Part shown: one piece after another, positions 1 through 26,737 of the stretch | Numbering within the stretch: the stretch's first letter is position 1 | Layout: each line of letters opens with the position of its first letter | DNA from: Eubacterium sp. | GTDB taxonomy: Bacteria > Bacillota > Clostridia > Lachnospirales > Lachnospiraceae | Direction: 5' to 3' | Assembly (NCBI GenBank): GCA_024683035.1 | Contig: JAIKYQ010000025.1 | Coordinates: forward strand, 1-34,296 | DNA: 34,296 nucleotides | Program-made: the position numbers and the translations under genes | The notes under the pieces: model-generated | What the model was told of the DNA's origin: nothing | The model's input: only the letters and a program-made list of their open reading frames with translations | Database searches by the model: none

Positions 1-130
1 TACCTACGGACGCGAAGTCCTAGCGGTTAAAGGCCAGACCGATTGCCACCTCATTCTAACAGCTTAAGCAACAAGATGGATAACATCCTATCTGGAAGAT
101 AGGAATATCAACCACTAAATACATAGTAGT

Positions 131-171
131 AGCGGTAAAAGTATATGTCCGCCGGCTGCCTCATATTGTAT
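131..171 (+). repeat. Dispersed repeat, near-perfect inverted copy of 15681-15719
   Basis: agcggtaaaagtatatgtccgccggctgcctcatattgtat vs the reverse complement of 15681-15719 (agcggcaaaagtatatgtccgacggctgcttcatattgtat-like), about 3 mismatches. Confidence 0.85.
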
Positions 172-202
172 CAGAAACGTATGCGGATCAGGACGAACCG
201 CT

Positions 203-15606: not shown

Positions 15607-15640
15607 AAGTCTGCAGGAAGTAATTCCGGCAGACTTTTTT
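15607..15640 (+). terminator. Intrinsic terminator after the BMC gene
   Basis: AAGTCTGC ... GCAGACTT followed by TTTT. Confidence 0.85.
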
Positions 15641-15680
15641 ATATCCGGTGATGTACATTCAGCAACGTATGGGTTTTAAT

Positions 15681-15882
15681 ACAATATGAAGCAGCCGTCG
15701 GACATATACTTTTGCCGCTTGCCTGAACCACTCCGCTGAGCTAACTGCCAACTTCGACCGGGCGACCGGGATGTTCATGAACGATCTATTCTCATCCCGG
15801 CCGCCTGGTCTGCGTATGTAGTGGATCTCAGCTTCGTTCCTTTCAGAATGCGCGCTTGTAAAAGTATATGTCCGCCGGCTGC
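15681..15882. ncRNA. Candidate structured RNA or MITE-like foldable element with 23-nt terminal inverted repeats
   Basis: Ends GCAGCCGTCGGACATATACTTTT (15691-15713) and AAAAGTATATGTCCGCCGGCTGC (15860-15882) are inverted with one mismatch; inner GCTGAG/CTCAGC and a 17-bp one-mismatch hairpin 15756-15810. Class not identified. Confidence 0.55.
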
Positions 15883-15902
15883 TGTCCACGTTTTGAAAAC
15901 CA

Positions 15903-16048
15903 GCATTCCGACTGGAAACAGGTCCCCATAAGCCGACTGTCGGAGCATGGCCGGCCCTTAGCGAGCCGGTCAGGCGAGCTTAGTGCCGCTGCCCATGCGA
16001 CCAAGCGCGAGCGTGTCGGCGATGGGGTTCTGTATCCGGGAGGAATGC
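15903..16048. ncRNA. Candidate structured RNA: approx. 29 paired bases in a long-range closing stem with internal branches
   Basis: GCATTCC/GGAATGC, CTGGA/TCCGG, ACAGG/TCTGT, CCCCAT/ATGGGG, GCCGAC/GTCGGC in nested order, with inner GCATGG/CCATGC and CCGGC/GCCGG. Confidence 0.55.
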
Positions 16049-16098
16049 GTCCGATTTATACTTTAAGAATTCATACTTTTTAAATCCTAAAAAAATGC

Positions 16099-16127
16099 TT
16101 GACATGCAGTGAGACTGCCCTTATAAT
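16099..16127 (+). promoter_or_regulatory. cysK promoter (TTGACA - 17 bp - TATAAT)
   Basis: TTGACA 16099-16104, TATAAT 16122-16127. Confidence 0.88.
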
Positions 16128-16144
16128 CCTATTTAACAAGTAGG
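16128..16144. promoter_or_regulatory. Putative Rrf2-family operator at cysK promoter
   Basis: CCTATTTAACAAGTAGG, imperfect palindrome immediately downstream of the -10; 14 of 17 positions match the nifS-promoter site. Confidence 0.5.
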
Positions 16145-16189
16145 AAATATAGGAATAAAATAAGACGCAAGGAGAAAGGAAGACATATC

Positions 16190-17119
16190 ATGGCTGCTAT
16201 TTATGCAAACACAACGGAACTGATCGGAAAAACACCTCTTGTAGAGCTGAACAAGCTGGAAGCAAAGTACAACCTGAAAGCCAGACTGATCGTCAAGCTG
16301 GAGTACTTCAATCCGGCCGGCAGTGTGAAAGACCGTATTGCCAAGGCAATGATCGAAGATGCGGAGAAGACGGGGAAACTGCAGAGCGGTGCTACGATCG
16401 TGGAGCCCACTTCCGGAAATACCGGGATCGGGCTGGCAGCCGTAGCGGCTGCCAAAGGATATAAACTGATCCTGACCATGCCGGAGACGATGAGTGTCGA
16501 GCGCCGGAACATTCTCAAAGCCTATGGTGCGGAACTGGTCCTGACGGAAGGGACGAAAGGCATGAAGGGAGCCATAGAGAAAGCAAAGCAGATCGTAGAC
16601 GAGACACCGGGAGCTTTTCTGCCGGGTCAGTTTGACAATCCGGCCAACCCGCGTATTCATTATGAAACGACCGGCCCGGAGATCTGGGAAGACACAGACG
16701 GAGAAGTGGATATCTTTCTGGCAGGTGTCGGTACCGGCGGTACGCTGACCGGGGTCGGAAAATACCTGAAAGAAAAGAAACCGGGAGTGGAGATCATAGC
16801 CGTGGAGCCGGACTCGTCACCGGTCCTTTCGGAAGGCAAGGCCGGTGCCCATAAGATCCAGGGGATCGGAGCCGGATTTGTACCCAGCGTTCTGGATACA
16901 GGCGTATACGACGCGATCATCCGCGTGGATAATGAAGTGCCGTTTGAAACGGCAAAAGAACTGGCGCAGACGGAAGGCATTCAGGCAGGTATTTCCTCCG
17001 GAGCAGCCCTGTATGCTGCGATCCAGACGGCGAAGAAACCGGAAAATGAAGGCAAGACAATCGTGGCGCTGCTGCCGGATTCGGGAGACCGGTACTATTC
17101 CACAGCCATTTATCAGTGA
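16190..17119 (+). CDS. cysK: Cysteine synthase A (O-acetylserine sulfhydrylase)
   Basis: [53 protein letters not shown]. Confidence 0.96.
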
Positions 17120-26416: not shown

Positions 26417-26445
26417 TTGACAAGGCAAAAACAGAATGGTACTAT
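26417..26445 (+). promoter_or_regulatory. rplJ-rplL promoter (TTGACA - 17 bp - TACTAT)
   Basis: TTGACA 26417-26422, TACTAT 26440-26445. Confidence 0.75.
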
Positions 26446-26449
26446 ACCA

Positions 26450-26570
26450 TCTGTATCACGCCGAAGACAGCAGGTGTCCCTTCGGGGACGTAAGCGAAGC
26501 GCCTGCCGAGGATGTAGATTTTTCCGGATGGATGATCTCCCCGTGTCTTTGGGCACGGGGTTTTTTGCGC
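26450..26570 (+). promoter_or_regulatory. Ribosomal protein L10 leader with attenuator
   Basis: Structured leader (agacagcaggtgtcccttcggggacgtaagcgaagcgcctgccgaggatgtagatttttccggatgg) followed by terminator CCCCGTG-TCTTTGGG-CACGGGG-TTTTTT (26539-26566), upstream of rplJ. Confidence 0.85.
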
Positions 26571-26737
26571 GATAAGCCGTCAAGCGGCTGCCGAGCTTGC
26601 TCGGGCAGACAATGGACGGCCAACGTACATCGAAGCGGCTTTGCCGCGAGATGTGCGCAGAGCGCAGGAAAGAACAGGAGTTCTTTCCGTTACCTCCGCT
26701 CAGCGTGAAACAAATAAGAAAAGGAGGAAAACAGATC

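What the first reader, a model, noticed from the sequence alone, without database searches (positions are those of the whole stretch)
15681..15882. End-to-end foldable approx. 200-nt intergenic element with 23-nt inverted termini and a possible pseudoknot
GCAGCCGTCGGACATATACTTTT (15691-15713) is the inverted match of AAAAGTATATGTCCGCCGGCTGC (15860-15882) with one mismatch. Inside lie GAAC/GTTC, GCTGAG (15735-15740)/CTCAGC (15827-15832), and a hairpin GACCGGGCGaCCGGGATG...CATCCCGGcCGCCTGGTC (15756-15810). CCACT (15728-15732) and AGTGG (15820-15824) are complementary but cross the GCTGAG helix, so a pseudoknot is possible. The element lies between the BMC-gene terminator and the cysK promoter with no convincing ORF. 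It could be a large structured ncRNA (compare first with Firmicutes classes such as the raiA motif) or a MITE-like mobile element.
Basis: partly seen in the sequence, partly recalled or inferred. Interest (0 to 1): 0.7.

Follow-up and report, generated by a model that had tools for sequence, protein, structure and literature searches.

The report
Dispersed palindromic repeat, also IS landing pad
The fold-back sequence is one copy of a previously unlisted family of repeated hairpin elements, with about 25-30 copies in this rumen bacterium's genome and relatives in at least 16 other genera of its family; it is probably a small passive mobile element, and another mobile element that carries its own guide RNA uses it as a landing site.

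Summary
It is not a single-copy ncRNA. The genome holds about 25-30 dispersed copies (A+B, A only, B only, deleted forms), another genome of the genus has diverged ones, and a covariance model of A's core finds relatives, mostly multicopy, in 16 other genera of the family. No Rfam family matches. Pairing is kept by compensatory change (27 of 62 pairs; 0 of 500 shuffles), without strand preference in the core, which favours maintenance as DNA palindrome over RNA. The proposed pseudoknot is not supported. Many copies start right after a stop codon, in sense. An IS110-family element, whose left end is window 1-130, sits inside A copies, and the target loop of its leader matches A. Best reading: a new TA-targeting, MITE/REP-like palindromic family used as IS110 landing site. 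No mobilising transposase was found; a 3'-UTR RNA role remains possible.

The parts
15668..16075 (+). Whole repeat copy (A+B form), 408 bp, from terminal repeat to terminal repeat
   Evidence: BLASTN copies cover query 9-400/416; alignment with flanks and end reading
15668..15681 (+). 5' terminal inverted repeat TATGGGTTTTAATA (family consensus YATAGGTTTT)
   Evidence: Ends of about 20 copies compared
16062..16075 (-). 3' terminal inverted repeat, reads TATGAATTCTTAAA on the minus strand
   Evidence: Ends of about 15 copies compared
15690..15883 (+). Hairpin module A (the palindrome of the finding)
   Evidence: Fold z -9.5; 62-pair consensus, 27 pairs with compensatory double change
15717..15858 (+). 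Conserved core of module A, modelled as R1
   Evidence: Covariance model hits in 17 of 298 family genomes
15899..16053 (+). Hairpin module B with branched or variable apex
   Evidence: Fold z -4.5 for 15886-16055; 52-pair consensus, 11 with double change; occurs alone in L027, L033, L038, L042
15707..15729 (+). Sequence corresponding to the IS110 target in other copies (window reads TACTTTTGCCGCTTGCCTGAACC)
   Evidence: IS110 inserted as TTTTACCGCT^TGCCTGAACC in C227; same left junction at window 130/131 and in C199
131..185 (-). 5' end of a second copy of the repeat, interrupted by an IS110-family element
1..130 (-). Left end of an IS110-family element with the start of its putative bridge RNA (left target guide TTTAACCGCT); cut off by the contig end
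   Evidence: Identical to the leader of the 420-aa IS110 transposase in L020

Best explanation
It is a copy of a new, family-wide group of non-autonomous palindromic repeats (MITE/REP-like). The mobile unit ends in short inverted repeats of TATA-N-N-TTTT type and appears to insert at TA dinucleotides, stop-codon TAs included. Its body is one or two long hairpins (A, B) whose pairing is kept while the sequence changes. Shown: the copies, their termini, structure conservation with compensatory change, spread across genera, and IS110 insertions inside copies. Inferred: that a TA-targeting transposase acting in trans moves it, and that the palindrome is kept at DNA level (hairpin or cruciform as substrate, or arm-to-arm correction). 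Separately, an IS110-family element uses the conserved base of the A hairpin as its landing site; the left and right target guides in its leader match that sequence, much as IS621 uses REP sequences. That the guides act this way here is inferred from sequence.
For: About 25-30 dispersed copies at 75-95% identity. Inverted TATAGGTTTT-type ends with TA at almost every readable terminus, and TATACTTTTT-type ends in another genus, G268. Orthologous spacers without the L013 copy in G010, G013, G006, G008, G012; L029 end in the dapA stop codon. No ORF of its own. Copies with palindrome-type deletions and A-only, B-only, A+B forms. Compensatory change without strand bias in the core: G.T 34, A.C 31 of 1966 cells; 14 and 10, 8 and 7 in own-genus A and B. 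IS110 transposase domains, insertion inside A, guide-target match with sibling copies as natural controls.
Against: No transposase with these ends was found; IS630 is absent from G000 and G013. No clean same-site filled/empty pair proves a TA duplication: the only empty sites are about 77% identical and one boundary only is alignable. A core conserved across 17 genera and the tight placement after stop codons in sense orientation are more than a passive MITE needs. Outer arms show some G.U excess on the sense strand, 78 against 35.
Confidence: 0.62

Rival explanations
1. It is a cis-acting structured RNA: the element is transcribed as the 3' end of the upstream gene's mRNA, and the hairpin with its conserved internal loops stabilises, processes or regulates that mRNA (as reported for NEMIS RNA). 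Copies may have spread by mobility but are kept for this role.
For: In other genera the upstream neighbour is on the same strand in 35 of 53 copies; in same-strand cases the stop codon lies 41-75 nt before the core in 35 of 44, so the outer stem starts 0-30 nt after the stop. Conserved loop sequences across genera. Covariation in 42 of 44 core pairs and copy-specific outer arms that still pair.
Against: No excess of G.U over A.C in the core or in shared pairs of own-genus copies; both strands fold equally well. In the own genus only 12 of 26 copies have a same-strand upstream neighbour. The window copy lies after an apparent terminator and before the cysK promoter. No expression data.
Confidence: 0.22
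2. It is a DNA recombination or binding site, for example a hairpin recognised by a single-strand (HUH/Y1) or tyrosine recombinase, with insertion behind stop codons as part of that mechanism.
For: Strand-symmetric pair conservation, conserved internal loops, sense placement behind stop codons, convergent pairs of copies.
Against: No recombinase was found near or between copies; ordinary host genes lie between convergent pairs. Genome-wide search for such enzymes was not made. Copies are dispersed, not in arrays, and the inverted TA ends fit a DDE transposase better.
Confidence: 0.12
3. It is a known large ncRNA class such as the raiA motif.
For: Strong fold of about 200 nt in an intergenic region.
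Against: No Rfam 15 match at gathering threshold for this region or for 27 other loci with copies, and only chance-level miRNA matches at E up to 10; many dispersed copies.
Confidence: 0.02

Closest known systems
ERIC/IRU, Correia/NEMIS and RUP elements (bacterial MITEs; review PMC2229807)
   Same: Multicopy, non-coding, intergenic, long stem-loops, terminal inverted repeats, 5'-TA-3' at the termini.
   Different: Larger (about 230 bp for A only, about 400 bp for A+B, against about 100-200 bp), two separable hairpin modules, a core conserved across at least 17 genera; no sequence relation was tested or seen; no IS630 partner found as proposed for RUP.
REP sequences as IS621 (IS110 family) targets (PMC11208160)
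   Same: Palindromic intergenic repeats that an IS110 element with a bridge RNA uses as landing site; target-binding loop has a left guide equal to the left target and a right guide complementary to the right target around a CT core.
   Different: These repeats are about ten times longer, have terminal inverted repeats with TA, and belong to Lachnospiraceae.
IS110 family (DEDD_Tnp_IS110 PF01548 + Transposase_20 PF02371)
   Same: The inserted element's 420-aa protein matches both domains.
   Different: Nothing unusual seen; it is an ordinary member with its own target guide.
BOX elements of Streptococcus pneumoniae (from memory)
   Same: Modular, intergenic, hairpin-forming repeats.
   Different: No boxA/B/C relation was tested; module number and ends differ.

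Membership tests
Bacterial MITE | Many dispersed non-coding copies in one genome | tested here: met
   About 25-30 copies at 75-95% identity
Bacterial MITE | Terminal inverted repeats | tested here: met
   YATAGGTTTT / AAAACCTATR, imperfect in single copies
Bacterial MITE | TA target-site duplication | tested here: inconclusive
   TA at almost all readable ends, dapA stop-codon case, empty orthologous spacers; no exact filled/empty pair from near-identical strains
Bacterial MITE | A transposase with matching ends in the same or a related genome | tested here: not met
   IS630 absent from G000 and G013; the IS630 loci of G014, G012, G009 lack the motif; exact TIR matches fall mostly in ordinary genes. 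MAGs are incomplete and other families were not searched. This feature is often unknown for accepted bacterial MITEs
REP / BIME | Short (20-40 nt) palindrome linked to a RAYT (Y1) transposase | tested here: not met
   Size fails: hairpin of about 194 bp. RAYT genes were not searched
Rfam ncRNA classes, raiA motif included | Match to the covariance model at gathering score | tested here: not met
IS110 family with bridge RNA (the inserted IS) | DEDD_Tnp_IS110 and Transposase_20 domains | tested here: met
   E 4.5e-29 and 5.3e-18
IS110 family with bridge RNA (the inserted IS) | Non-coding leader with a target-binding loop that matches the target on both sides of a CT core | tested here: met
   Left guide UUUAACCGCU against TTTTACCGCT, right guide AGGUAAG against CTTGCCT (one G.U); C90 sibling CUCUUUUCU 9 of 9; G015 siblings GUGAAACCU against GTGAAGCCT. 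Sequence match only; the RNA was not tested

The most novel reading that the evidence does not exclude
A new, Lachnospiraceae-wide class of structured genetic element: multicopy, placed directly after stop codons in sense orientation, with a conserved core and copy-specific but complementary outer arms, kept by selection in place (as a 3'-UTR RNA or a single-strand DNA site) and not merely a passive MITE.
Probability: 0.27. Interest if true: 0.78.

Novelty: new variant of a known kind. Interest (0 to 1): 0.55.

Why it matters
A structured repeat that is absent from Rfam and present, mostly in several copies, in at least 17 genera of a major gut family would be a sizeable gap in annotation; it bears on gene 3' ends, on assembly breaks and on IS targeting. 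The IS110 pairing gives a natural guide/target set outside the E. coli REP case. The copy-specific but complementary arms are a natural test of how palindromes are kept perfect.

Tried and rejected
raiA and other Rfam classes: no match. Pseudoknot: no support. tRNA-like origin: ARAGORN finds no tRNA gene in the window. IS630 as partner: absent from G000 and G013; IS630 loci in G014, G012 and G009 do not carry the terminal repeat. Autonomous element between convergent pairs of A (2.3 and 6.2 kb apart): only ordinary host genes between them. Strand of action from G.U excess: no bias in the core, a weak one in the outer arms. An early count that suggested sense-strand wobble excess (71 against 14) was set aside because the structure had been fitted to that strand. 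Copies in viral contigs: none with four exact core patterns. One badly written terminal-repeat pattern search was wasted.

Full report
OBSERVATION. The 24-nt inverted termini (15690-15713 and 15860-15883, 96% complementary) and the nested helices are in the sequence. The 210-nt stretch folds at -100 kcal/mol (z -9.5), and the complementary strand at -102.4 (z -8.4). The neighbouring stretch 15886-16055 also folds (z -4.5).

IT IS A REPEAT. BLASTN of 15660-16080 against the window's own genome (G000, 2.24 Mb, 227 contigs, 81.6% complete) gives dispersed copies at 75-95% identity covering query 9-400; with fragments joined there are about 25-30. Aligning 27 copies with flanks shows two modules. 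Module A (window 15690-15883) and module B (15899-16053) occur together, or as A only (L019, L029, L021, L024, L031), or as B only (L027, L033). Several copies lack the hairpin apex (L018, L032, L025, L026), some lack the apical part of B, and four carry a longer insert in B (L014, L015, L030, L034). The ends are inverted repeats of YATAGGTTTT type with TA at almost every readable terminus; the window copy runs from 15668 to 16075.

RELATIVES IN THE GENUS. Among 61 genomes, clear copies were found by BLASTN in only one other, G013 of the same genus. Its contig C57 has the length and sequence of a contig of MAG RUG12916, an uncultured Lachnospiraceae bacterium. An exact core pattern over 85,462 species genomes returned two records, both uncultured Lachnospiraceae MAGs. 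The spacers orthologous to the L013 site in G010, G013, G006, G008 and G012 have no element. For L029 the element's right end falls in the stop codon of a dapA-like gene (the name is from the sequence, no search was made): G013 has TAA where G000 reads TAG completed by the element end. In L033 the end of the element likewise seems to supply the TAA stop of a neighbouring ORF.

STRUCTURE CONSERVATION. Twenty-one full A copies align almost without gaps. RNAalifold gives 62 pairs, 27 with compensatory double change; 97% of cells pair against 89% in shuffles, and 0 of 500 shuffles reach the observed covariation. Module B has 52 pairs, 11 with double change. The pseudoknot CCACT/AGTGG has no compensatory change. 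Eleven recent copies carry few private changes: 16 in 60 unpaired and 20 in 124 paired columns, 8 of these breaking a pair, so selection in place is not shown for this genome.

SPREAD ACROSS GENERA. A covariance model of A's core (R1) searched over 298 genomes of the family, nearly one per genus, hit 17 genomes: the own one and 16 in other genera, with best E-values per genome from 2e-22 to 3e-7, 12 of the 16 with two or more copies (only ten candidates per genome were scored, so counts are lower bounds). The model itself came from the own genus and L059. The hits share recognisable loop sequence (CTAACTNCTAACTNCGAC ... GTCTNCGTAAGNAGTGGAT), which argues against chance fits. On 54 such copies 96% of cells pair and 42 of 44 pairs show double changes (this alignment was fitted to the model). 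The outer arms are not in the model and so are an independent check: in G065 and G141 the 5' arms of different copies are 55-60% identical (random 38-mers align at 49% by the same method), yet each copy's two arms pair with each other at -63 to -67 kcal/mol on average, against -26 to -29 across copies. In G065 many arms are perfect complements over 25 bp or more. No Rfam family matches. In G268 the ends read TATACTTTTT on both sides, so TA-ended inverted repeats are not confined to the own genus.

DNA OR RNA. If one RNA strand were under selection, G.U pairs should clearly outnumber A.C mispairs. In the core they number 34 and 31 of 1966 cells. In own-genus copies, pairs found on both strands give 14 and 10 for A and 8 and 7 for B. 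The outer arms give 78 G.U pairs on the sense strand against 35 on the other, perhaps from a few constant terminal pairs. This leans to maintenance at DNA level and does not settle the matter. On the other side, in other genera the upstream neighbour is on the same strand in 35 of 53 copies, and where it is, the stop codon is mostly 41-75 nt before the core (35 of 44 inspected, own genus included), so that the outer stem starts 0-30 nt after the stop. The orientation bias is not seen in the own genus as a whole (12 of 26), although same-strand cases there abut the stop too. Gene calls are simple ORF picks. The window copy lies after an apparent terminator of the BMC gene (about 15608-15641, read by eye; the scanner did not call it) and before a perfect-consensus promoter of cysK at 16099-16127.

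IS110 LANDING SITE. Window 131-185 (-) is the 5' end of another A copy; window 1-130 (-) is a sequence found at three other places in this genome. In contig C227 it is the left end of an element whose 420-aa protein (L020:516-1778:-) matches DEDD_Tnp_IS110 and Transposase_20, inserted as TTTTACCGCT^[IS]^TGCCTGAACC inside A. The non-coding leader folds into a loop with UUUAACCGCU on its 5' side and GUAGGUAAGU on its 3' side around a small hairpin, the layout of the IS621 target-binding loop (PMC11208160). The left guide equals the A target TTTTACCGCT at 9 of 10 positions, and AGGUAAG pairs with CTTGCCT with one G.U. Siblings are natural controls: the C90 copy sits at another left target, CTCTTTTCT, and its left guide is identical to that; the G015 copies have target GTGAAGCCT and guide GUGAAACCU. 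All three copies with the first guide (window, C199, C227) lie in A. The assembly holds one full transposase gene only, so the other copies are seen by their left ends.

MECHANISM. Best supported: a non-autonomous, TA-targeting palindromic element moved by an unidentified transposase, its palindrome kept at DNA level, and used by an IS110 element as landing site. Shown: repeats, ends, structure, covariation, spread, IS110 insertions, guide-target match in sequence. Inferred: mobilisation in trans, TA duplication, DNA-level arm maintenance, action of the guides. Not found: the transposase. IS630 is absent from G000 and G013, exact terminal-repeat matches elsewhere in G000, G013 and G010 fall mostly in ordinary genes, and convergent A pairs enclose ordinary genes. 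G013 also has a 134-bp element with perfect TATAGGTTTT ends, so the terminal repeat recurs on other bodies.

COMPARISON. It resembles ERIC, NEMIS/Correia and RUP in terminal repeats, TA ends and long stem-loops (PMC2229807), and REP in being an IS110 target (PMC11208160). It differs in size, in the two modules and in a core conserved across genera. Searches of open-access papers found no description of it; subscription journals are mostly not covered.

Noticed in passing
window 1-130 (-), with L020, L037, L096, L091, L094: IS110-family element whose sibling copies in this genome and in G015 have different target guides that match their own insertion sites: a natural guide/target series.
   Followed up: yes
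L142:1501-1634 (G013:C265:1863-1996): 134-bp element with perfect TATAGGTTTT/AAAACCTATA ends and a body that shares GAGCTAACTGCCAACTCCGG with module A.
   Followed up: partly
L137, L140, L143 (G010): Three sites with TATAGGTTTTGA or its complement close to CGGACGCAGG-like sequence: possibly a related terminal-repeat family in G010.
   Followed up: no
L190, L202, L210, L040, L043: Convergent pairs of A elements 100-260 bp apart; in L207 each lies behind its own gene of a convergent gene pair.
   Followed up: partly
L188-L193, L232-L238 (G065) and L200-L203, L245-L250 (G141): Outer arms almost unrelated between copies of one genome yet nearly perfectly complementary within each copy, between conserved GGACGCAG and CTGCTGG.
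   Followed up: partly
L014, L015, L030, L034 (module B): Four B copies share a longer internal insert (CCCGCCGGGCTACTAAG ... GCACTTCGTTGCACTCGTGCTCAGCAAGTGC) that is itself palindromic.
   Followed up: no
window 26443-26575 (+): Rfam L10_leader (RF00557), 58.3 bits, ahead of the ribosomal protein genes; expected.
   Followed up: no
window 16099-16190: Perfect sigma-70 consensus promoter (12 of 12) upstream of cysK, followed by TAGGAAATATAGG, possibly a regulator site.
   Followed up: no
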